A stretch of 64,000 nucleotides of DNA from Opitutales bacterium (GTDB lineage: Bacteria; Verrucomicrobiota; Verrucomicrobiia; Opitutales; JABSRG01), in the NCBI GenBank assembly GCA_028280845.1, contig JANQKZ010000034.1, forward strand, positions 1-64,000, in the 5' to 3' direction. Shown one piece after another: positions 4,811 to 63,032 of the stretch; position 1 is the stretch's first letter, and each line of letters begins with the position of its first letter. The translations under genes were made by a program, and so were the position numbers. The notes beneath the pieces are model-generated. The model searched no databases, was not told where the DNA came from, and saw only the letters and a program-made list of their open reading frames with translations.

Positions 4811-7800
4811 TTAAGAGATTAGTTTGTCTTTGAGGTAGGGGGCGGTGGGGCTGCTTTTGCGTTTGAGCAGGCCACTGACTTTACCCTGGTAGAGGATGCG
4901 GCCTCCCTTATCTCCACCTCCGGGACCGACTTCCACCACATAATCCGCTTCGGCGATCAGGTCCAGGTGGTGTTCAATCACAATAACCGTGTGGCCCTGA
5001 TCCACAAGGCGATGCAGGAGTTCGATGAGGCGTTCGCAATCTCTCAGGTGTAGGCCAATGGTGGGTTCTTCAAGGATATACAGATTGCGCGGTCTGATTC
5101 CGCGGGAGCGTTCGGTATAGGTCTGGAGCCCTTTCGCCAGTTCACTGACCAGCTTGAGTCGTTGGGCTTCCCCTCCGCTTAATGTTGGAGAGCTTTGCCC
5201 CAGGTTCAGATAGCCAAGGCCGGTCTCCACCATGAGGTTGAGCATGGCCTTGAGGTGGCTGTGGAAATCGAAAAAGTCAGCAGCTTCTTCAAATGACATG
5301 TTCAGGACCTCGCCGATGTTTTTCCCCTTCCATCGAATGTCATCCAACTCCGGACCATAGCGGAGTCCGTTGCAGGCATCGCAATTGATATAGGTGTCGG
5401 GGAGGAAGGCCATTTCCAATTTGATCCGTCCAGCGCCCTTACACTTTTCACATCGACCGCCCTTGGTGTTAAAGGAGAAGGTGCCAGAATTCATTCCGCG
5501 CATTTTCGCTTCGGGAAGGGAGGCAAACAAATCGCGGATGATGTTGTAAGCGCCTATATAGGTAGAGGGTGTAGAGCGTGGCGTTTTGCCGATTGGGCTT
5601 TGGTCGACTTCAATCACCTGCTTAAAGCCATTGCCATTCACAATCTGATCGAGGGGGGGCTGACCGTTTTCTAAATCCTCCAGAAAGTAATGGCCGTCCC
5701 GTACCAGGGCCGTTCCTTTGAGGCGTTTGGCCTGGTTTTGGATGGCCCCCTCGATGGCGGGTTTCATGCAGTCCCGAATCAAGGTCGACTTTCCCGCGCC
5801 CGAAACCCCACACACCATGATGAGCCGGTTGAGGGGCAGTTGAAGGGTCTCTCCCTGTAGGTTGCGTAAGGAAGCATTCTGGAGGAGGAGCCATTGGTCA
5901 TTCGTTTTGGCTCGGCTACCTGCCTTGTATGGGGCAGGTAGCTGTCGATACTTTCCGCGGAGCGGGTGTGGAATGCCCGTCTTTAAATATTGGGCTGTGA
6001 GAGAGTTTTTGTTCGTTAGAACCTGGTCGACCGGGCCTTTGGCCAGGACCTCTCCTCCGTGGAGTCCCGCTCCGGGCCCCATGTCGATGATGTGGTCAGC
6101 AGCCCGCATGGTATCGTCATCGTGTTCAACCACGAGCAGGGTATTTCCCTTGTCACGGAGTTCGGTCATTGACTGAATAAGCCGATCATTGTCCCGGGCG
6201 TGAAGTCCGATGCTGGGCTCGTCGAGGACATAGAGGACACCAGCCAGGTTGCTCCCTAATTGGGCTGCCAGGCGGATACGTTGGGCCTCCCCGCCAGAAA
6301 GGGTATTGGTTGCCCGATCGAGAGTGAGGTACTCGATGCCGACCTTGTCCATGAATTGGAGTCGCTCAGATATTTGAGGGATGATGTCATCCGCAATTTG
6401 TCGCCCCCGTGCGTCCAACTTCATTTTTGAGAGGGTTTTCAGGAGGGAGCGAGGGTGTTGAGCCAACAGTTCGGGAAGGGAAATAGACTGGCCTCCCCGC
6501 AGCGGCAGGCGAACGGCGCGGCTGATTTCGTTGAGGCGTTCCCCGCCGCAGTCCGGACATAAACTACCGTGGTCGACATCATCGATATCTTCCGGCATGT
6601 CTTCCCGGTCTTTCATCCAGTCATAGATTCGGCCGTGGCCTCGGCAAGTCGGGCACCAGCCTTTGGAGCTGTTCCAGGAGAAGTGTTTGGGATCGAGTTC
6701 AGGAAAGGAGTCTCCGGTCTCGGGATCGGTTTTCGTTTTGGAAAACCATGCCTGAATCGTGCCGTCGGGGGTCATGAGAAAGCAGGAGCCCTTACCCAGG
6801 CGAAGCGCGGTCTTCATGGCTGCGGCGGGGTCGACGCGTTGCCGCTTTTTCTGGCTGTCGTAAGCCTGCATCGGTTGAGAACCGAGATCTGCGACCAGCA
6901 ACTCAATATCGTGTTCTTTATATCGGTCGAGCTTCTGGAAGTTGCTCAACGGAGTGAGGACCCCATCGCACCGGAGGAATTGATAACCGTGGTCGATCGC
7001 CCAGTTGGCCAGGGGCTGGTGGTGGCCCTTGCGCCCACGAATGAGGGGGGCAAAGAGGTAGAGGTGTTTGGCCCTTGCCAGGTTTTTTCGCGCCAGGACC
7101 TCCTTCAAGCGGTTCTGGATCTGGGGATCCGTCATCGGAAGAACAGCTTTGCCGGTGCGTGGGTGGTGCTGAACCCCGACCCGCGCATAGAGGAGTCGTA
7201 GATACTGGGCGACCTCGGTGATTGTCGCGACAGTCGATTTGCGGCTTCCCCGGGTGACCCGTTGCTCAATCGCGACGGTTGGGGCAATCCCGAGAAGCGC
7301 ATCGATATCCGGTTTGGGCATCTGCTCCACGAACTGGCGGGCATAGGAGGACATGGACTCCATGAAGCGGCGTTGTCCCTCGGCAAAAATAATATCGAAG
7401 GCGAGCGAACTTTTTCCTGATCCCGATACGCCGGTGACTACAGTCAATTTTCCGTGGGGAATGTTGACCGAAATATCCTTCAGGTTGTGTTCCCTAGCGC
7501 CTATCACGCGGAGGGCGTTGGCATCGCTGCTGCGGTTTCCATTGCCGAATGGAGCGGAGGCCTCTTTGACGGTAGTTTCAGATTTTGGATTGCCGGTGTC
7601 ACTCCCATCGGCACGGATTTCGGATTTCAGATTTTCCGTGAGTAGTTCTTTGAGGTAGGGCCCGGTTTCGGTCTTCTTTTTGGCAATGGTTTCGGGGGTG
7701 CCAGCGGCGACGAGCTTCCCTCCCTTGCTCCCCGCCTCGGGTCCCATCTCAATCAGCCAGTCTGCGGCAGCAAGGACATCCATCTGGTGTTCGATGACGA

Positions 7801-10537
7801 GGACACTGTGGCCATGATCGACCAGTTGCTGAAGCACTTGAATAAGGCGCCTGACATCCTCCCGGTGCAAGCCGGTGGTCGGCTCATCGAGGAGCAATAA
7901 GGCCTGATCCTCCGTATGAGCGAATCGGGATAGATACTTGACCAATTTCAAGCGCTGGCTCTCTCCGCCAGATAAGGTATTCAGGGGTTGTCCAAGCTGC
8001 AGATAGCCCAGACCAACATCTTGTAGGGCTTGCAGCCGCGCCTGGATACGCGGTTCCTTTTGAAAGACCTCGAGCGCGCGGTTTACATCCATTCCAAGGA
8101 TATCAGCGATGGTGAAGTCCTGCCATTTGATTTCGAGGACTTCCGGCCGGAAACGTTGACCGTGGCAGGTCGGGCATTCGACAAAGACATCGCTAAGGAA
8201 CTGCATTTCCACCCGCTCATAGCCAAGTCCTGAACAGGTGGGGCACCGCCCTTCCCCGGAATTAAAGCTGAAATGGGCATGGGTCATGCCCTGGGCTTTT
8301 GCCTGGTCGGTGGCAGCGAATCGTTCTCGAATGGGGTCCCATGCCTCGGTGAAGAGGGCGGGATTGGACCTGGGGGTCCGGCTGATGGGGGCCTGGTCTA
8401 CAAGGACAATTTCTGAAAAGCCGTGAGGCTGATCAATCTCCCGAATCATTGCCGGGTCCTCAGTCTGGCGTCCTCGCAGATTGAGAAGACCCTGGTATAT
8501 GACGTTGTTGAGGAGGGTGGATTTTCCTGAGCCGGATACTCCGCTAATGGCGACCAGTCGATTCAAGGGAACGGAAATATCGAGGTCTTTGATGTTGTGC
8601 TTTGATGCTCCGTAGAAATGGATGGAGGAACGGGGGTTTGCTTCGCGGGATGAGGACCCCCCTGCTCTATTTTCAGGAGAGCCCTTGCCCTTATACGGGC
8701 TTATTTCAGCTACCCTTCGTCGACTATCCGGAATGGCGATGGATTTGCGACCAGCCAGATAATCGCCGGTCAGCGAGCCTTTCTTTTTTAGGAGTTGCTT
8801 CAGGGTGCCATTAAAGGTGAGCTGCCCACCTCCATTTCCGGGATAGGGTCCGATTTCGAGGAGGGTGTCCGCCGCCTTCATAATCTCCTCATCATGTTCG
8901 ACTACAACGACGGTGTTTCCCAGCGAGGTGAGGCGTTTCAGGATGCCGATCAGGCGATCGATGTCTCTTGCGTGTAATCCTACACTGGGTTCGTCGAGCA
9001 CGAACAGGGTATCGACCAGGGAGGTGCCCAGGCAGCCCGTCAGGTTGACCCGCATGGTTTCCCCTCCGCTCAGGGTACGGCTGGACCGATCGAGGGTGAG
9101 GTAGCCGAGGCCGACCTGTTCGAGGTAACGCAGGCGGGTGAGGATAGCTTCCAGGGCGAGATCCAATTGGTGCTGGACGCCATTCCTGCCAGGAGTTGCG
9201 GCCTTGGATTGTGAACCGGGGTTCCCTTTCTCAATGAGGTGGAGGAGATCTGAAATCGGCAATAGGTAGAGATCTGGAAGACGATACCCCTTCCATCTCC
9301 AATTCAGGGCTTCCGGCTGAAGCCGGGTTCCCCCGCAATGAGGACAACTCACATACGCGCGGTATTTGGAAAGAAATACCCGGACATGCATCTTATAGGT
9401 CTGAGTTTCCAGCCAATCGAAAAAACGCCGAACCCCATACCATTTATGAGTCCACTCTCCTTCCTGATAATCCGCCTCACCCTCCATGATGAACTCGATA
9501 GCCTCCTCAGCCATGTCGGCCCAGGGGATGTGAGTCGGGATACCCTTCGCCTTGCACGCGCGTATGCAATCGCGCAGGCTTTCTGAGTAAACACTGCCGG
9601 TAAAGGCTTTGATCGCGCCCTCTTCAAGGCTTTTGGTGTGGTCCGGCACCACCAGCCGATAATCGATTTCGATGACTCGGCCGAACCCACGGCAATGGGG
9701 GCAGGCCCCGACGGGAGAATTGAAGGAAAACAGGGCAGGGGAGGAGGGGGCGAATGTTTTGCCCGTGGATGGCGAGTGCAGGCCCTCCGAGAAGATCGCG
9801 AGCGGCGACCCGTCCATGGCAAACAATTGGATGACCCCCTGGCCGAAGTGGAGAGCAGTCTCAATGGACTCGATGAACCGCCCGCGCTGGTTGCGGTTGA
9901 GTTTGATGCGATCCTGGATGACGTAGACCGCATCACCTTCCGGGCCTGCGAGGTTTTCCGTGAGACGAATGGGTGGAGCTCCTTCCCCGGGTAAGATCCG
10001 CGAATACCCCTGGGCGATCAGGGACTCGTAGATTTCTTTCCAGCTCAGGTTGTCCGGTCGGGTAATCTTAAAGGTCACAAGGACCTCCTGCTTCTCGAAG
10101 CCGTGAATTGCATCGAGCCAGATACTTTGAGGATTGTCGTCCTTGATTCGTTCTCCCGTCTCGGGGTCAAACAGTTCGGCTACATGTGCAAACCAGATTT
10201 TAAAGAAATCCGTCAACTCGGTCATGGTGCCCACGGTGGATCGTGAGGTCTTTACCGTATTCCGCTGTTCGATAGCGATGGATGGGCGAATATTGTCGAT
10301 TTGGTCCACCTGTGGGCGATCCAATAGCTCAAGAAATTGCCGTGTGTATGGACTGAATGTCTCTACGTACCGGCGTTGCCCTTCAGCATGAATGGTTTCG
10401 AATACAAGGGATGACTTTCCCGCCCCACTCAAACCAGTGACAACCACGAGGTGTCCGAGGGGGACATCCAGATCGAAGCCCTTCAGGTTATTTTGGCGGA
10501 CCCCTTTAAGGGAGATAAAATTCGCGCGTTCAGCCAT
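4811..10537 (-). CDS. uvrA: Double-length (fused tandem) UvrA excinuclease ATPase subunit
   Basis: A 1908-residue protein made of two complete UvrA protomers in one chain; ordinary UvrA has about 940 residues. UvrA recognises damaged DNA and loads UvrB in nucleotide excision repair. Four ABC Walker A motifs are visible: GLSGAGKS near 35, GVSGSGKS near 666 and 1036, and GVSGAGKS near 1580. Each has an LSGGE signature and an LDEP- or LEEP-type Walker B. Cys pairs of the zinc modules (CPHC, CPTC...CPTC, CPTC...CPDC, CEKC...CDAC) occur in both halves. A low-complexity linker around 955-985 joins them. The ordinary UvrA dimer is thus covalent here. Similar long UvrAs are known from Chlamydiae and relatives. 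Confidence 0.96.
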   Translation of the reverse strand: MAERANFISLKGVRQNNLKGFDLDVPLGHLVVVTGLSGAGKSSLVFETIHAEGQRRYVETFSPYTRQFLELLDRPQVDQIDNIRPSIAIEQRNTVKTSRSTVGTMTELTDFFKIWFAHVAELFDPETGERIKDDNPQSIWLDAIHGFEKQEVLVTFKITRPDNLSWKEIYESLIAQGYSRILPGEGAPPIRLTENLAGPEGDAVYVIQDRIKLNRNQRGRFIESIETALHFGQGVIQLFAMDGSPLAIFSEGLHSPSTGKTFAPSSPALFSFNSPVGACPHCRGFGRVIEIDYRLVVPDHTKSLEEGAIKAFTGSVYSESLRDCIRACKAKGIPTHIPWADMAEEAIEFIMEGEADYQEGEWTHKWYGVRRFFDWLETQTYKMHVRVFLSKYRAYVSCPHCGGTRLQPEALNWRWKGYRLPDLYLLPISDLLHLIEKGNPGSQSKAATPGRNGVQHQLDLALEAILTRLRYLEQVGLGYLTLDRSSRTLSGGETMRVNLTGCLGTSLVDTLFVLDEPSVGLHARDIDRLIGILKRLTSLGNTVVVVEHDEEIMKAADTLLEIGPYPGNGGGQLTFNGTLKQLLKKKGSLTGDYLAGRKSIAIPDSRRRVAEISPYKGKGSPENRAGGSSSREANPRSSIHFYGASKHNIKDLDISVPLNRLVAISGVSGSGKSTLLNNVIYQGLLNLRGRQTEDPAMIREIDQPHGFSEIVLVDQAPISRTPRSNPALFTEAWDPIRERFAATDQAKAQGMTHAHFSFNSGEGRCPTCSGLGYERVEMQFLSDVFVECPTCHGQRFRPEVLEIKWQDFTIADILGMDVNRALEVFQKEPRIQARLQALQDVGLGYLQLGQPLNTLSGGESQRLKLVKYLSRFAHTEDQALLLLDEPTTGLHREDVRRLIQVLQQLVDHGHSVLVIEHQMDVLAAADWLIEMGPEAGSKGGKLVAAGTPETIAKKKTETGPYLKELLTENLKSEIRADGSDTGNPKSETTVKEASAPFGNGNRSSDANALRVIGAREHNLKDISVNIPHGKLTVVTGVSGSGKSSLAFDIIFAEGQRRFMESMSSYARQFVEQMPKPDIDALLGIAPTVAIEQRVTRGSRKSTVATITEVAQYLRLLYARVGVQHHPRTGKAVLPMTDPQIQNRLKEVLARKNLARAKHLYLFAPLIRGRKGHHQPLANWAIDHGYQFLRCDGVLTPLSNFQKLDRYKEHDIELLVADLGSQPMQAYDSQKKRQRVDPAAAMKTALRLGKGSCFLMTPDGTIQAWFSKTKTDPETGDSFPELDPKHFSWNSSKGWCPTCRGHGRIYDWMKDREDMPEDIDDVDHGSLCPDCGGERLNEISRAVRLPLRGGQSISLPELLAQHPRSLLKTLSKMKLDARGRQIADDIIPQISERLQFMDKVGIEYLTLDRATNTLSGGEAQRIRLAAQLGSNLAGVLYVLDEPSIGLHARDNDRLIQSMTELRDKGNTLLVVEHDDDTMRAADHIIDMGPGAGLHGGEVLAKGPVDQVLTNKNSLTAQYLKTGIPHPLRGKYRQLPAPYKAGSRAKTNDQWLLLQNASLRNLQGETLQLPLNRLIMVCGVSGAGKSTLIRDCMKPAIEGAIQNQAKRLKGTALVRDGHYFLEDLENGQPPLDQIVNGNGFKQVIEVDQSPIGKTPRSTPSTYIGAYNIIRDLFASLPEAKMRGMNSGTFSFNTKGGRCEKCKGAGRIKLEMAFLPDTYINCDACNGLRYGPELDDIRWKGKNIGEVLNMSFEEAADFFDFHSHLKAMLNLMVETGLGYLNLGQSSPTLSGGEAQRLKLVSELAKGLQTYTERSRGIRPRNLYILEEPTIGLHLRDCERLIELLHRLVDQGHTVIVIEHHLDLIAEADYVVEVGPGGGDKGGRILYQGKVSGLLKRKSSPTAPYLKDKLIS

Positions 10538-57183: not shown

Positions 57184-57212
57184 AAGCCTTGCCGGTTCGG
57201 CAGGGCTTTTTT
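57184..57212 (+). terminator. Rho-independent terminator after tsf
   Basis: A perfect 11-pair stem AAGCCTTGCCG/CGGCAGGGCTT with loop GTT ends in a T-run, 24 bases after the tsf stop. Confidence 0.92.
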
Positions 57213-57376: not shown

Positions 57377-58240
57377 ATGAATTCGCCTTCAAAATCCATT
57401 CCACTCCTTGTTGGAGTCTACCTGCTGGGGATGGCCTTGTTCCTGACAGGCTGCATCACTTCGGGTGGGACTCTGGCGACTCCGAATCTCGTTGATGACG
57501 AAAAAGTTGTCCAGATGAGCGAGGAGCAGTTTGAACAGATAAAGAAGGTCTCGCGGTTAACGCGAGCACCCAACTATGTGAATCAAGTCAATCGTGTCAT
57601 GGATCAACTCTCGACACAGGTCAACTGGTGGGAATTTGCGGCAGATTGGGAAATCATCATCATCAACGACAATGCGAATATCAATGCGTTCGCCATGGCA
57701 GGAGGAAAGATCGGGGTCTACACCGGGCTGCTCAATCTAGTCGAAAATGATGACCAACTGGCTTTTGTTCTCGCTCATGAAATTTCTCATGTAACGAAAA
57801 AGCACGTCCACAAGAAGCTTTCGGAATCTATGGTAAAAGAGGCGGGAGGAGCTGTCGTGGGCACGGCAGCCGCAGGAACAGGCGTTTATACAGGAGGTAC
57901 CTATATCGGACTCGGATCGGCCGTGAGCGGGCTTTATAACATGGGTAGTGGCGTTGCGGGGCTCTCGATGGATCGGGGCAAGGAGCGGGAAGCCGACATG
58001 GAAGGGTTATTTCTCATGGCTAAGGCTGGTTTCGATCCCAATGAAGCGATTCGCATCATCGAACTGGTCGATATGAAAGCGATGAGCGGGGGAGCCAGAG
58101 CTCCGTCCGCTTGGCTATCCACACATCCGACTTCTTTTGATCGAATGGTTAAAGTGAACGCAAACATGCCCCAGGCTCTGGAATATTATGAGCAGGCAAA
58201 GGGCATCGCGCTATCAACCGGAGGGGTGATCGGCATATAA
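57377..58240 (+). CDS. M48-family metalloprotease lipoprotein
   Basis: A 287-residue zinc protease of the BepA/LoiP type. The lipobox LFLTGC (Cys26) anchors it to a membrane. The catalytic motif HEISH (H134-H138) and the downstream ligand Glu in KEREADMEGLFLMAKAGFDP are present, with AMAGGKIGVYTGLLNL as the conserved pre-motif strand. A Gly/Ala-rich loop links the two. Such proteases clear misassembled outer-membrane or envelope proteins. It sits 51 bases before the three-gene low-complexity operon on the same strand. The ATG at 57377 is preferred over a TTG at 57362. Confidence 0.92.
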   Translation: MNSPSKSIPLLVGVYLLGMALFLTGCITSGGTLATPNLVDDEKVVQMSEEQFEQIKKVSRLTRAPNYVNQVNRVMDQLSTQVNWWEFAADWEIIIINDNANINAFAMAGGKIGVYTGLLNLVENDDQLAFVLAHEISHVTKKHVHKKLSESMVKEAGGAVVGTAAAGTGVYTGGTYIGLGSAVSGLYNMGSGVAGLSMDRGKEREADMEGLFLMAKAGFDPNEAIRIIELVDMKAMSGGARAPSAWLSTHPTSFDRMVKVNANMPQALEYYEQAKGIALSTGGVIGI

Positions 58241-58291
58241 ACTTTTTCGCACCCAATTTGAAAAACGTAAGGCAATACGAATATTCTCCCT

Positions 58292-60046
58292 ATGACCCCT
58301 GAAGACGAAAACAACGTTTCCAAGAAAAAGCTGAAAGTCATCGACTGGCACATGGCCGATCCTATCTCCGCTGATCTGGAAGACGACATCCGGATGTCGG
58401 CCCCCAAACGGGAAAGTTCGGGCTTCTTGAAAAAGGCTGTTACCTTTGCTGTGGTCGCCATAATTGGTGTGGTCAGCGTTCGGGTTTTCGTCGTCTATCG
58501 CCAGATACAGAAAGAGATGGCTGCAGCGATGGAAGGCAATCAGGCCACCCTGACTGCGAGTACTGAATTTAATCCAAATATCCCGCTCCAGGACAGTTTC
58601 GTCAGCCGGCCGAAAGCTGAACTGGCCCGCGATGAAGTGCGCGACAAGCTGCAAACGACCCGCCAAACGACTGATCTGGATAGCCCAGTCATCATGTCCA
58701 AGCTGCTGGGTGTAGAAATGGCCTTTCAACAGGGAGATAAGTTGTTGGAGCGGCGGGACTATTCGGGGGCCTATCAACGATTTGAAGAAACGCGGGTCAT
58801 GCTGGAGCAGTTTCAGACCGACATGTCGAACAAGGCAGAGTCCCTCGCCGCCCGCGACGACTATCTCCTGCTGCGCAACAAGGTAGAGCCACAGCGCAGC
58901 ATCGATATGGATTCTTATGAGCGAGCCTTTGCCTTCTACAGCGAGGGGGTCTTCTTTTTAGAAAACGGTAGCTTTTTCGAAGCGAGTGAACGATTTTCTG
59001 ATGCGCTAGTGGAGCTCCGCGTCCTGGAGAACAAGATTCAGGGGTTTGTGGACCGCCGGCTTCTCGAAGGGCAAGCGGCCCTGGCCAAAGGAGACAGCTC
59101 CACCGCAATGACCATTTTCAACGATGTTCTCGGCATTGAGGACGAGAATGAAATTGCACGAAACGGCGTGAAGCGGGCGGAAACCCTCGACCAGGTTTTT
59201 CCCTTGCTGGAACAAGCTGAGACTCTTGAAGGTTCCGGAGACCTGGTGGCAGCCAACGACGCCTACGTTCGAGCCTATGAACTCGACAACTTTTCCGCTA
59301 AAGCCCAGCAGGGGATGTATCGGACTGAACGCCTGGTGAAGGATTACACCTTTAATTCGGCTTTGATCGACGCCCATAATGCAGCCACAGCCGCGAATTG
59401 GTATGACGCCATCGAGGCGTATGACCGCGCCTTGAACGTTTATCCAGAGAACGAGGAGGTGAAGCAGCTCCGTGAAGATGCGGTCCAATTGGAGTATGAG
59501 CTGCGCCTTGCCGATGGTTTGGACAAAGCCAAGTTTTATGAAGATAGCAGTGAGTGGGATCTTGCTAAAGATGCCTACATCGAGGTATTGGAAATTGAGC
59601 CGGAAAATACAATCGCAAAGGAAGGACTACTGCGCACGGGGCGCATGGTTCGTGTGCTTCTTCGCTACGAAAAACTGATTGAACTGTCTCTCCTGGAAGC
59701 CCGTAGCGGAGAATTCCAATCTGCCATTCGTTATTTCAATGAAGCGATGGGAATCAAACCTGACTTTCTCACCCTGTCCCTGGACGCCGAGCGGTTGAAG
59801 AATTACCTGGAAGCCCAGAGCAAGCCCGTCTCCATCACTTTGGTATCGGATGGAAAAACCTGGGTCAGCGTGGCGGGCTATGAATTGCTTGGAAAAATCA
59901 GAGAGAAGTCCATCCGCATCCTCCCGGGCAAGTACCGTATTGTCGGCCGCCGGAAAGGCTATGAGGACGTGAATATCCAGGTGCAAGTTGTCGCCGGCCA
60001 GAGCATCCCGCCCATTACCGTGATTGCCAGTAAGAAAGTTGGTTAA
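58292..60046 (+). CDS. Membrane-anchored TPR-like protein with PEGA-like C-terminus
   Basis: A 584-residue protein. Residues 1-45 are cytoplasmic and charged, 46-66 form a membrane helix (AVTFAVVAIIGVVSVRVFVV), and the rest is extracytoplasmic. The bulk is TPR-like helical repeats (GSFFEASERFSDALVELRVL; ANWYDAIEAYDRALNVYPEN; SSEWDLAKDAYIEVLEIEPE; SGEFQSAIRYFNEAMGIKPD). The final 70 residues look like a PEGA-type beta module (RILPGKYRIVGRRKGYEDVN). No enzyme motif is seen. It stands 19 bases before the Gln-rich gene, so the three genes form one operon. It could be a scaffold for exported partners (inference). The start follows TATTCTCCCT. Confidence 0.85.
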   Translation: MTPEDENNVSKKKLKVIDWHMADPISADLEDDIRMSAPKRESSGFLKKAVTFAVVAIIGVVSVRVFVVYRQIQKEMAAAMEGNQATLTASTEFNPNIPLQDSFVSRPKAELARDEVRDKLQTTRQTTDLDSPVIMSKLLGVEMAFQQGDKLLERRDYSGAYQRFEETRVMLEQFQTDMSNKAESLAARDDYLLLRNKVEPQRSIDMDSYERAFAFYSEGVFFLENGSFFEASERFSDALVELRVLENKIQGFVDRRLLEGQAALAKGDSSTAMTIFNDVLGIEDENEIARNGVKRAETLDQVFPLLEQAETLEGSGDLVAANDAYVRAYELDNFSAKAQQGMYRTERLVKDYTFNSALIDAHNAATAANWYDAIEAYDRALNVYPENEEVKQLREDAVQLEYELRLADGLDKAKFYEDSSEWDLAKDAYIEVLEIEPENTIAKEGLLRTGRMVRVLLRYEKLIELSLLEARSGEFQSAIRYFNEAMGIKPDFLTLSLDAERLKNYLEAQSKPVSITLVSDGKTWVSVAGYELLGKIREKSIRILPGKYRIVGRRKGYEDVNIQVQVVAGQSIPPITVIASKKVG

Positions 60047-60065
60047 CCTTTTCCCCTACAGCCCC

Positions 60066-60920
60066 ATGAACGCCCGTCTGCTAATTCCCCTGATCTTTGC
60101 CACTTCGCTGATTCCGCTTAGTGCCCAAATTGGCTCTCAACCGATTGGTAGCACTCGCACCGACACTCCAGATCCTGACATATGGGATGGAACCATGGTT
60201 GAAAATACCGAAGAGGAGCGCACGGAACAGCCCCATTATGCACGGGTAGGCGACTACTCCGAGGGCAACTCCCTCGAAGGTATGAAAAACCAGGTTGAAG
60301 GCTGGAATTCCCCGCAAAGCCAACAGCAGGGCGGTGGTCAGCAACAGCAGCAGGGGCAAGGCCAGGGTGGTCAAGGCGGTCAGGAACAAGGTGAAAGCGA
60401 CCAGCAACAACAAGGTCCTGGCGGACAAGGCGGTCAAGATCAGGAAGAAGGTGAACAAGGCGGCGGCGGCCTGGAAGGTATGCCGGAAGCGATGGCTCAA
60501 GAAATGGGACAACAGGGTCAACAGGGCCAACAGGGTGGCGGAATGGGCCAACAAGGCAGCATGGCCCAGCAGGGTGGGATGCAACAAGGTGGCATGCAGC
60601 AGCAAGGGGGTATGCAACAGGGCGGCATGCAAGGCAGCCCGCTAGACGCGCTGGCAGCCATTACTTCCCAGGCACAGAGTGCAATGAATCAGCGTTCGCA
60701 ACAGCAACAGCAGCAAGCGGGTATGCAAGGTTCTGAAGAGATTGGTAATAATCCTTACGCAGTGGATGCCGCCAATGTTGCCGATCAACAAACGATCGGA
60801 GATATGGAAGCGGTTCAGGAGCCGACTCCGGCCTCAGCGAATCGTTCTGCCACGGGTCGACAAGAACAGTCCCGGTCCACCGGATCTGAAGTCGGAGACA
60901 AAATGCCGTCCGATATTTAA
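60066..60920 (+). CDS. Secreted Gln/Gly-rich low-complexity protein
   Basis: A 284-residue exported protein with a signal peptide (MNARLLIPLIFATSLIPLSA). A short ordered region follows, containing WDGTMVENTEEERTEQPHYA. About 150 residues are then almost wholly Gln, Gly and Met (GGQGQEQ-, QQGGMQQGGM-type repeats), and the rest is a mildly ordered tail. Bases are strongly biased to CAG/CAA and GGN codons. No family is recognised. Such sequences are typical of sticky or gel-forming extracellular material. The gene lies 19 bases after the TPR gene and 18 before the poly-Ser gene. Confidence 0.8.
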   Translation: MNARLLIPLIFATSLIPLSAQIGSQPIGSTRTDTPDPDIWDGTMVENTEEERTEQPHYARVGDYSEGNSLEGMKNQVEGWNSPQSQQQGGGQQQQQGQGQGGQGGQEQGESDQQQQGPGGQGGQDQEEGEQGGGGLEGMPEAMAQEMGQQGQQGQQGGGMGQQGSMAQQGGMQQGGMQQQGGMQQGGMQGSPLDALAAITSQAQSAMNQRSQQQQQQAGMQGSEEIGNNPYAVDAANVADQQTIGDMEAVQEPTPASANRSATGRQEQSRSTGSEVGDKMPSDI

Positions 60921-60938
60921 TTTTTTTCCATCCGTTTC

Positions 60939-61781
60939 ATGAAGACTCGCATCCTTTCCGTATTCATCCTGTTCCTCATCCCTGGCTTTCTCAGCTATGG
61001 AGGAAGTTTCATTCTGCCCGTCGATGCGATTGAAGCCGCTCGTAAGATGGACGCTGCCGAATTTCGTGAAAAGTTTCCGGGTATTCCCCTGAATGGAAAT
61101 TACATGGGCGATTTTGGCTATTATGTCCGGTATAAGCATGAGAATCTATATTACTTTTTCGGGCCCTCGGAAACCGTAGAGGAAGCGCAAGAGGCCATGT
61201 ATCAGCTCGAAGATATTCTCATTGAAGCCATGGTGCAGCGCCCCAGCTTGTCGACCGCCCAAATTGATATCATCCAGTTTGATGAAACCGGCCTGCAAAG
61301 TATCGGCGATGGTACTGGCGGCATGGGAGGCGACCGCCCCTTTGGTGGCTTTGGTGACGAAGGCGACCAGATGGGTGGCATGGGGGATATGACCGATGGC
61401 GGTATGGGTGGCCAGAACGGTAACCAAATGGGTGGCATGGATGGCGACCAGATGGGCAATCAGGGCCAGGACGGTAACCAGATGGGCCAGAATGGAAACC
61501 AGCAGGGCAACCAGGGTAATCAGCAGGGGCAGCAGGGTCGACAAGGCCAACAGGGTCAGCAACAAGGCCAACAAGGCCAGATGAGTCAAAGCGGCCAAAT
61601 GAGTCAGAGTGGCCAGCAAAGCTCCAGTTCCAGCTCGAGCTCTTCTTCAAGTAGCAGTTCCTCGTCGTCTTCTTCTTCTTCTTCTTCTTCGAGTTCGAGC
61701 TCCCAGCAGGGATCTGGCTCGGGGCAACCGCCACCTCCCAATATCTGGGAAGTCATTCGCCGGGCGATCCTCGGGGGATAG
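60939..61781 (+). CDS. Secreted Gln/Gly-rich protein with a 28-serine tract
   Basis: A 280-residue exported protein. A signal peptide (ILSVFILFLIPGFLSYG) is followed by an ordered 110-residue domain (DAAEFREKFPGIPLNGNYMG; YYVRYKHENLYYFFGPSETV), then a Gly/Met/Gln-rich region and 28 consecutive Ser. It ends with a Pro-rich stretch and a short hydrophobic helix (PNIWEVIRRAILGG). The Ser tract is encoded by mixed AGC/TCN codons including seven TCT in a row (about 61668-61688), a possible slippage site that would stay in frame. It is last in the operon. Function is unknown. Confidence 0.8.
   Translation: MKTRILSVFILFLIPGFLSYGGSFILPVDAIEAARKMDAAEFREKFPGIPLNGNYMGDFGYYVRYKHENLYYFFGPSETVEEAQEAMYQLEDILIEAMVQRPSLSTAQIDIIQFDETGLQSIGDGTGGMGGDRPFGGFGDEGDQMGGMGDMTDGGMGGQNGNQMGGMDGDQMGNQGQDGNQMGQNGNQQGNQGNQQGQQGRQGQQGQQQGQQGQMSQSGQMSQSGQQSSSSSSSSSSSSSSSSSSSSSSSSSSSSQQGSGSGQPPPPNIWEVIRRAILGG
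61668..61688 (+). repeat. TCT trinucleotide repeat (7 copies) inside the poly-Ser tract
   Basis: Seven tandem TCT codons. A change in copy number would alter tract length but not the frame. Confidence 0.7.
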
Positions 61782-61801: not shown

Positions 61802-62371
61802 CTACAGGATTACCAAGTCGAGATTGTGAATTTCCGGGGGCAGCCCGAGGAACTCATCTACGAATCCATCGAGGTGGTCCTTCGTTTTTGGGGAGAGCAG
61901 TTTGGTGATTTCTTCCATGGCTTCAGCGGAAATCATCATTGGCAGGTAGTCATACAGCATGTGGTCGGCTGAGCAGATGGACATGATCTGATATTCTCCC
62001 GCTTCCTCTCGGGATTTGCCCGTAATGATGCAGTGATCAATCCAATCCACCAGCCGCCGGTCGCTTTGCTTCATGAGATGCTCCCGTCGCTGAATCAGGT
62101 CGACATGCTCGTGGAAGTAGTGGTCTACCCGGGTCTGGCTTTCCTGGGAAATCTGTTTTTGCATTTTTGTCCGGCAGTCCAGGCAGATGGCATATTCAAA
62201 AATGACTTCATCTTTTTTGAAGGCCCGCTCGATGAGGTAGGGCTGTTCAGTGGTGTAAATCGGACACCCGCACACCTGGCATTGGCGAAACGGTCCATCC
62301 TCTGCAAAGGACTCAAACTCCGGGGGAATTGGCCGGCTATCGGGTTGATCCTCATAATCAGGAAGGTCCAT
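61802..62371 (-). CDS. Conserved protein of unknown function with two CxxC pairs
   Basis: A 189-residue cytoplasmic protein. CQVCGCPIY and, about 35 residues later, CLDCRTKM form a likely zinc-binding unit. A helical region follows (ESQTRVDHYFHEHVDLIQRR) and a C-terminal part (EITKLLSPKTKDHLDGFVDE). Lengths and Cys spacing resemble unknown proteins in other Verrucomicrobiota, but I do not recognise a family. It converges with the poly-Ser gene, 20 bases apart. Confidence 0.75.
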   Translation of the reverse strand: MDLPDYEDQPDSRPIPPEFESFAEDGPFRQCQVCGCPIYTTEQPYLIERAFKKDEVIFEYAICLDCRTKMQKQISQESQTRVDHYFHEHVDLIQRREHLMKQSDRRLVDWIDHCIITGKSREEAGEYQIMSICSADHMLYDYLPMMISAEAMEEITKLLSPKTKDHLDGFVDEFLGLPPEIHNLDLVIL

Positions 62372-62507
62372 GAGGATAGTATGAAATCAGATTGATAAAA
62401 TCAGAAGGAAGAAATGCAGGTGGGGAGTGGATATTCGGGATCTCCGGGGCCCTAAACTGGGAGGCAATAGGCTTGAGTGTGGCGGCGGGGTCTCCATTTT
62501 TTCAAAA

Positions 62508-63032
62508 ATGGCTCAGGATCCCAATGAACTGTTTGATGTGGTGGATAGCTCGGACCGAGTTATCGGTCAGTCCTCTCGAGGGGAGGTGCATCGCCTGGGG
62601 CTACGGCATCGTGCTATCCACATCTGGTTATTCAATCGGGATGGGCAGTTGTTTATCCAGAAACGGTCCATGCAGAAGGACACCGCAGCAGGCAAATGGG
62701 ATAGTTCAGCTAGCGGCCACGTGAATAGTGGGGAAAGGTATTTGGAGTCTGCCGAACGCGAGTGTGTCGAGGAATTGGGGTGCGCCTTGCACGGGATGCT
62801 GTGGCCTATAATCAAGGTTGATCCCTGCGCCGAAACGGGGAATGAGTTTGTCTGGGTTTACCGGGGGACGCACGAGGGACCGTTTACCTTGCACCCGGAG
62901 GAGATTGAGTGCGGGGAATGGATTTCGCCCACAAGGTTGGAACAGCAGTTCGCGTCCTCCCCGGATGCCTATGCCAGGTCTTTCCGGTATCTGTGGGAAC
63001 AGGTGCAGGCCGCCGGAGTCTACCTCATTTAA
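62508..63032 (+). CDS. Nudix hydrolase, YfcD/IPP-isomerase-like
   Basis: A 174-residue Nudix enzyme. The Nudix box GHVNSGERYLESAERECVEE-LG fits GX5EX7REUXEEXGU exactly. The flanking DPNELFDVVDSSDRVIGQ, RHRAIHIWLFNRDGQLFIQK and GKWDSSASGH resemble YfcD, with partial likeness to isopentenyl-diphosphate isomerase. It likely hydrolyses a nucleotide or related diphosphate. The ATG at 62508 gives the typical N-terminus; an in-frame GTG at 62427 is less likely. Confidence 0.92.
   Translation: MAQDPNELFDVVDSSDRVIGQSSRGEVHRLGLRHRAIHIWLFNRDGQLFIQKRSMQKDTAAGKWDSSASGHVNSGERYLESAERECVEELGCALHGMLWPIIKVDPCAETGNEFVWVYRGTHEGPFTLHPEEIECGEWISPTRLEQQFASSPDAYARSFRYLWEQVQAAGVYLI

What the first reader, a model, noticed from the sequence alone, without database searches (positions are those of the whole stretch)
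57377..61781. Unrecognised operon: M48 protease lipoprotein, membrane TPR/PEGA-like protein and two secreted low-complexity proteins
Four same-strand genes spaced by 51, 19 and 18 bases combine an envelope protease, a membrane-anchored TPR scaffold and two exported Gln/Gly-rich proteins, one with 28 serines. The two exported proteins share a layout of signal peptide, ordered N-terminal part, then Q/G/M repeats. I know of no named system of this make-up. A scaffold-plus-matrix or gel/adhesion system that needs quality control by the protease is a plausible reading, but it is inference.
Basis: partly seen in the sequence, partly recalled or inferred. Interest (0 to 1): 0.65.

Follow-up and report, generated by a model that had tools for sequence, protein, structure and literature searches.

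The report
Periplasmic partners of a proton-driven motor
Four neighbouring genes encode an envelope protease, a membrane-anchored repeat protein and two exported, mostly disordered proteins; the last three occur almost only in bacteria that also carry a recently predicted proton-driven motor of unknown job, so they are probably the missing envelope-spanning half of that machine.

Summary
In detail: four same-strand genes (M48 lipoprotein A, TPR protein B, low-complexity exported proteins C and D). B-C-D is a conserved ordered module (44 distinct C proteins). M48 genes adjoin B in 17 further loci, there divergently, and A groups with exactly those M48s (100/99). The low-complexity stretches are variable linkers: Q/G here, S/T, P or acidic elsewhere, missing in some D proteins. 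Conserved instead are the ends: DPD(I/L)FDG and a PS(D/N/G)(L/I/F) C-terminus in C; a ~100-residue domain and an xWxxI+xIFG tail in D. This argues against a matrix. Unexpectedly, B/C/D co-occur almost perfectly with an ExbB/TolQ-type channel gene and two TM-coiled-coil-vWA genes (B and vWA: both in 22 of 388 genomes, 3 discordant, p 1e-32). The motor genes are convergent neighbours in 13 loci, lie in one run with B in another lineage, and sit on another contig in the window's own genome. That motor class was predicted in 2025 (PMC12204202) without function or these partners. Best reading: B-C-D, with the M48 as accessory, is the motor's periplasmic arm and tethers. Linkage is shown; force transmission is inferred.

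The parts
57184..57208 (+). terminator-like hairpin after tsf, upstream boundary of the operon
   Evidence: 11-pair stem plus T run; consensus match only
57377..58240 (+). A: M48 metalloprotease lipoprotein (lipobox LTGC, HEISH)
   Evidence: Pfam PF01435 1.7e-31; groups 100/99 with the 17 M48s that adjoin B in other genomes
58292..60046 (+). B: inner-membrane-anchored periplasmic TPR protein
   Evidence: TPR over Pfam cut-offs; AlphaFold pLDDT 88.5; found in 24 of 388 phylum genomes, 22 of them with the vWA pair
58322..58348 (+). cytoplasmic motif of B (KKKLKVIDW; KKRRxIHWNP in relatives)
   Evidence: alignment A2; absent in the marine f10 clade
58436..58498 (+). TM helix of B, about residues 49-69
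   Evidence: sequence; inside helix 44-82 of the model
59828..59989 (+). C-terminal beta domain of B, residues 513-566; holds the most conserved residues of B
   Evidence: model; invariant D520 and P545; no Pfam PEGA match shown
60066..60920 (+). C: exported disordered protein with conserved ends
   Evidence: 44 distinct relatives between B and D
60171..60191 (+). N-terminal motif of C (DPDIWDG)
   Evidence: present in 43 of 44 distinct C proteins
60882..60917 (+). C-terminal motif of C (GSEVGDKMPSDI-COOH)
   Evidence: last four residues fit [PS][SKTA][DNG][LIF] in 42 of 44
60939..61781 (+). D: exported protein = ~100-residue domain + low-complexity linker + amphipathic tail
60993..61313 (+). 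D domain, model beta-alpha-alpha-beta-beta-alpha-beta
   Evidence: 56-sequence alignment A3; AlphaFold pLDDT 83; no PDB fold match
61620..61703 (+). 28-serine run in the linker of D
   Evidence: mixed codons; runs of 30-43 Ser in five Opitutaceae-type D proteins
61740..61778 (+). amphipathic tail of D (NIWEVIRRAILGG)
   Evidence: xWxxI+xIFG-type tail in most Opitutia D proteins, TM segment in f47 relatives

Best explanation
B, C and D are the periplasmic half of a proton-driven trans-envelope machine. Its inner-membrane motor, an ExbB/TolQ-like channel with two paired vWA proteins (V1, V2), is encoded on another contig of this genome (L159 = G000:C59:5000-24000; ExbB 9465-10340, U 7997-9451, V1 6914-7984, V2 5784-6911, all - strand). 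V1 and V2 carry an ExbD/TolR-like helix with an invariant Asp. Proposed working: the ExbB pentamer turns or pulls the V1-V2 pair; their coiled-coil and vWA parts engage the TPR arm of B, which reaches into the periplasm from its own anchor. C and D are flexible tethers whose conserved ends bind fixed partners (DPDIFDG and PSDL-type ends of C; domain and amphipathic tail of D) and pass force or position on towards the outer membrane or wall. The M48 lipoprotein is an accessory that clips or quality-controls envelope components. Shown: gene content, module, linkage, co-occurrence, conserved ends. Inferred: physical contact, force transmission, localisation, the protease's task.
For: Near-perfect co-occurrence of B and D with the vWA pair in 388 phylum genomes (B and V: 22 both, 2 + 1 discordant, 363 neither, p 1.4e-32; D and V: 21, 1 + 2, 364, p 2.1e-31) and in 62 relatives (11, 1, 0, 50). 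Presence and absence agree also inside families f1, f10, f13, f21 and genus g48. Convergent neighbours in 13 loci of three families; one same-strand run B-PEGA/FGE-ExbB-U-V1-V2 in family f52 (L174). G064 lacks V and has a broken B frame. ExbB: MotA_ExbB 8e-15; V: invariant Asp in the TM segment, VWA in 9 of 20 members. The C59 ExbB is the only one of 11 in the genome with no ExbD match on its contig. Published precedent for the motor class: PMC12204202. Tethers: C ends; D tails.
Against: In this genome the two operons are unlinked. C could not be traced outside Opitutia, and D was not detected in G185 and G345, which have B and V, so C and D are not obligatory for every motor. The M48 is not adjacent in families f4, f10 and f21. 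Co-occurrence p-values ignore kinship. The identity of U is unknown.
Confidence: 0.6

Rival explanations
1. Extracellular matrix, gel or adhesion system: C and D are exported Q/G- and Ser-rich surface polymers, B a scaffold, A a quality-control protease.
For: Signal peptides on C and D, extreme composition, 28-Ser run; long Ser runs recur in Opitutaceae.
Against: Linker composition drifts freely (Q 0.28 to 0.00) while the ends are conserved; D without linker or tail in L096, L098, L100 and L025; tight co-occurrence with an inner-membrane motor; f47 D relatives end in a TM anchor.
Confidence: 0.08
2. Outer-membrane assembly quality control: the M48 protein with the separate TPR protein B does what BepA (M48 + TPR in one chain) does, and C and D are chaperone-like helpers; the motor link is a shared regulon or niche effect.
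For: A resembles BepA and LoiP over the protease domain (3.4e-26 and 3e-19); A groups with the B-adjacent M48s.
Against: Scores are far below the BepA and LoiP cut-offs (92 of 570; 69 of 365 bits); the M48 is the loosest part of the module while the motor link holds throughout; B is anchored in the inner membrane by a TM helix.
Confidence: 0.15
3. A surface-motility or attachment machine comparable to myxobacterial focal-adhesion gliding, with this motor as engine. This is a specific task for the best explanation rather than a different mechanism.
For: PMC12204202 suggests a gliding role for vWA transducers; B has a weak TPR match to myxobacterial TraC, 8.4e-12.
Against: No gliding gene beyond a generic ExbB-type channel was identified; the TraC match is TPR-only and far below cut-off (44.5 of 500 bits); carriers include small-genome marine MAGs.
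Confidence: 0.13

Closest known systems
TolQ-like channel with paired TPH-vWA proteins (predicted motor class, PMC12204202, Mol Biol Evol 2025)
   Same: ExbB/TolQ-type gene beside a pair of different vWA genes with an Asp-bearing transpore helix, no tolR/exbD in the operon.
   Different: That paper names no partners and no function for this class. Here B, C, D, U, an M48 and lipoproteins are tied to it by co-occurrence and gene order.
Tol-Pal and Ton systems
   Same: Proton-driven ExbB/TolQ motor, periplasm-spanning partners, outer-membrane lipoproteins nearby.
   Different: No ExbD/TolR in the operon, no TolA/TonB-type transducer in it; a TPR protein and disordered tethers instead. This genome has ten other ExbD genes for ordinary systems.
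BepA and LoiP M48 proteases
   Same: M48 lipoprotein-type protease domain.
   Different: A lacks the TPR part of BepA and scores far under both curated cut-offs; the TPR protein is a separate, membrane-anchored gene.
Zorya anti-phage system
   Same: MotA/ExbB-type channel protein.
   Different: Only a weak ZorA match through the shared channel domain; no ZorB, ZorC or ZorD match.

Membership tests
TolQ + paired TPH-vWA motor class | tolQ/exbB-type gene in the operon | tested here: met
   PF01618 at 8.4e-15 in the own genome; profile hits in all linked operons
TolQ + paired TPH-vWA motor class | two different vWA genes with a TM helix carrying a conserved Asp | tested here: met
   two copies in every positive genome; invariant D18 in 20 sequences; VWA in 9 of 20
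TolQ + paired TPH-vWA motor class | no tolR/exbD gene alongside | tested here: met
   no ExbD match on contig C59
TolQ + paired TPH-vWA motor class | membership of B, C and D themselves in a described motor system | not testable with these tools
   PMC12204202 does not describe such partners for this class; its TPR gene belongs to another vWA class and was not compared
Tol-Pal / Ton | ExbD/TolR partner in the motor operon | tested here: not met
Tol-Pal / Ton | TolA/TonB-type transducer | tested here: inconclusive
   none in the own operon; a TonB_C gene lies next to the M48 in several Opitutaceae-type loci
Peptidase family M48 (A) | M48 domain with HExxH | tested here: met
BepA | whole-protein curated score (M48 + TPR) | tested here: not met
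   92.1 of 570 bits
PEGA-domain proteins (B) | PEGA domain | tested here: inconclusive
   no PEGA match for the window's B up to E 1 nor among the 25 families shown for 46 relatives; the C-terminal beta domain was not folded and searched alone
SPOR domain (D) | SPOR profile or fold | tested here: inconclusive
   2 of 56 members at best 0.004; no SPOR structure among fold matches
Zorya | ZorB, ZorC or ZorD partners | tested here: not met
   only ZorA at 3e-4 among the eight proteins

The most novel reading that the evidence does not exclude
An undescribed trans-envelope machine in which a V1-V2 vWA pair, moved by an ExbB pentamer, drives an inner-membrane TPR arm and two disordered periplasmic cords (C, D) with dedicated end motifs: a Tol/Ton-like force line built from unrelated parts.
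Probability: 0.3. Interest if true: 0.82.

Novelty: new variant of a known kind. Interest (0 to 1): 0.63.

Why it matters
Proton-driven motors with paired vWA proteins were predicted in 2025 from structure models, with no task and no partners for this class. This work names concrete partners (B, C, D, probably the M48) and gives short, testable end motifs. It also shows that proteins which look like matrix or gel proteins by composition can be tethers whose composition drifts freely. Single-gene deletions would now make the function of this motor class testable.

Tried and rejected
(a) Matrix/gel reading: set aside on linker drift and tailless D proteins. (b) Low-complexity tracts as recent slippage: the Ser run has mixed codons and recurs in other genera. 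(c) Known fold for the D domain: no PDB sequence hit (only antibody chains at E 0.4), Foldseek best E 0.9, VIA-align best Z 3.5 among unrelated proteins; a missing match does not show a new fold. (d) Identity of U (~490 aa between ExbB and V1): no Pfam family apart from one FHA match at 3.5e-4 in L017, no PDB hit; I first took it for an actin/Hsp70-like protein by eye but could not support this. (e) PDB search with the V profile returned only coiled coils. (f) After the first relatives search I took the M48 to be no part of the module; the wider set reversed this. (h) Searches failed on a wrong frame or an unusable search term; one search was a malformed report.

Full report
WHAT IS THERE. A is an M48 metalloprotease with a lipobox (LTGC) and HEISH. 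B has a short cytoplasmic stretch, one TM helix, a long TPR solenoid and a C-terminal beta domain (AlphaFold pLDDT 88.5; Foldseek's best matches are TPR/helical-repeat proteins). C and D have signal peptides and match no Pfam family above its cut-off.

B-C-D IS A CONSERVED MODULE. Searching relatives with B and with the N-terminal part of D finds the same places, and the order B-C-D recurs. A scan of 84,980 species genomes with the D domain returned 36 loci, all in Verrucomicrobiota/PVC records, most of them Opitutales, Opitutaceae or Puniceicoccaceae (one search pattern, so more distant relatives may be missed). Exceptions in order are few: an extra gene between B and C in L024, and B and D on separate contigs in G008 and G011.

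THE LOW-COMPLEXITY PARTS ARE LINKERS. In 44 distinct C proteins the region after the signal peptide carries D[PV]x[IL][FLW][DE][GA] in 43, and the last four residues fit [PS][SKTA][DNG][LIF] in 42. Between these ends the Q fraction falls from 0.28 (window) to 0.00-0.05 in seven of the loci sampled, replaced by S/T, P or acidic residues. D keeps a ~100-residue domain with six invariant positions (G, Y, H, L, G, P) and, in most Opitutia, a tail of the form xWxxI+xIFG. Relatives in family f47 end in a TM segment, and L025, L096, L098 and L100 have neither long linker nor tail. This is the pattern of a tether with binding ends rather than of a polymer selected for its composition. Binding itself is inferred.

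THE M48. In 17 loci an M48 gene adjoins B, transcribed divergently. A tree of 47 M48 proteins puts the window's A with exactly these 17 (100/99), apart from the M48s of genomes without B. The window's branch is long (1.73), so its exact place is unsure. In families f4, f10 and f21 the M48 is not adjacent. It is best called an accessory.

THE MOTOR. Clustering neighbouring genes across loci showed a four-gene operon convergent with B-C-D in L017 and 11 Opitutaceae-type loci, and then in G007 (L024/L169): ExbB-like, U, V1, V2. V1 and V2 have a TM segment with an invariant Asp (SFLDCICCGFGAVILLF in V2), a coiled coil and a vWA domain; V2 keeps a MIDAS-type DTSGSM and V1 does not. In the window's own genome the operon lies on contig C59. 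Of 11 ExbB matches in that genome only this one has no ExbD match on its contig. Beside it, divergent, lie a glycine-zipper lipoprotein and two further lipoproteins, one with a DUF4136 match, an arrangement that recurs in G030, G046, G275 and Opitutaceae-type loci. In G011, G032 and G048 the operon lacks U.

CO-OCCURRENCE. In 388 genomes across the phylum, B and V: 22 both, 2 B only, 1 V only, 363 neither (p 1.4e-32); D and V: 21, 1, 2, 364 (p 2.1e-31). In 62 near relatives: 11 both, 1 B only (G014, 82% complete), 0 V only, 50 neither. The p-values ignore kinship, but presence and absence also agree inside families f1, f10, f13 and f21 and inside genus g48 (G210 and G325 have both, G137 and G181 neither). 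In G064 V is absent and B's frame is broken, which fits joint decay, though a MAG error cannot be excluded. In L174 (family f52) B, a PEGA+FGE gene, ExbB, U, V1 and V2 form one same-strand run, so the link reaches a lineage outside the order.

WHAT IS KNOWN. PMC12204202 (Mol Biol Evol 2025) predicts from AlphaFold 3 models a class of tolQ-like genes next to pairs of vWA genes with a TolR/ExbD-like helix and conserved Asp, without tolR/exbD, mainly in Proteobacteria and Verrucomicrobia, and describes these as systems remaining to be discovered. The V genes here meet those features. For another vWA class (TolA-like, with tolR pairs) that paper notes an uncharacterised TPR gene; whether it is related to B was not tested. 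My paper searches (open-access full text only) found no description of the B-C-D module.

MECHANISM. Shown: content, order, co-occurrence, conserved ends, domain architecture. From established knowledge: MotA/TolQ/ExbB pentamers with two Asp-bearing helices are proton-driven motors. Inferred: that V1-V2 is the two-helix partner here, that their vWA parts engage B, that C and D relay to outer-membrane-side partners, and that the M48 lipoprotein trims or polices them. I put functional linkage of B-C-D with the motor at about 0.85, the periplasmic-arm/tether mechanism at about 0.6, and any one cellular task (outer-membrane tethering, division, attachment, movement) below 0.3.

Noticed in passing
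L159:10474-12684 (own genome, contig C59): Divergent from the ExbB gene: a glycine-zipper lipoprotein and two more lipoproteins (one DUF4136-like), an arrangement that recurs in G030, G046, G275 and Opitutaceae-type loci; possible outer-membrane-side members of the system.
   Followed up: partly
L025 / L068 (G064:C6): B is split over several frames in a 99% complete 1.7 Mb genome that has no detectable V pair; looks like decay of the system, or a MAG error.
   Followed up: partly
L024:3808-5916 and L174:8405-10498: A ~700-aa protein with several PEGA domains and an FGE-sulfatase domain sits directly after B in two distant lineages; absent from the window operon.
   Followed up: partly
L069, L076, L086, L104-L108 (family f47 and kin): D-domain proteins with a C-terminal TM segment in place of the amphipathic tail, next to coiled-coil proteins; their B homologue and motor are elsewhere in the genome.
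   Followed up: partly
window 62427-63032; L160:14454-15050; L168:9285-9785: A Nudix (IPP-isomerase-like) gene lies near B-C-D in the window, and a similar-looking one near the motor operon in G030 and G046; possible trace of former linkage, judged by eye only.
   Followed up: no
window 61802-62371 (- strand): 189-aa protein with paired CxxC motifs directly downstream of D on the opposite strand; no Pfam family above cut-off.
   Followed up: no
own genome contigs C7, C11, C30, C42, C44, C50, C62: Ten further ExbB and ten ExbD matches: a rich set of Ton/Tol-type motors in one genome.
   Followed up: no
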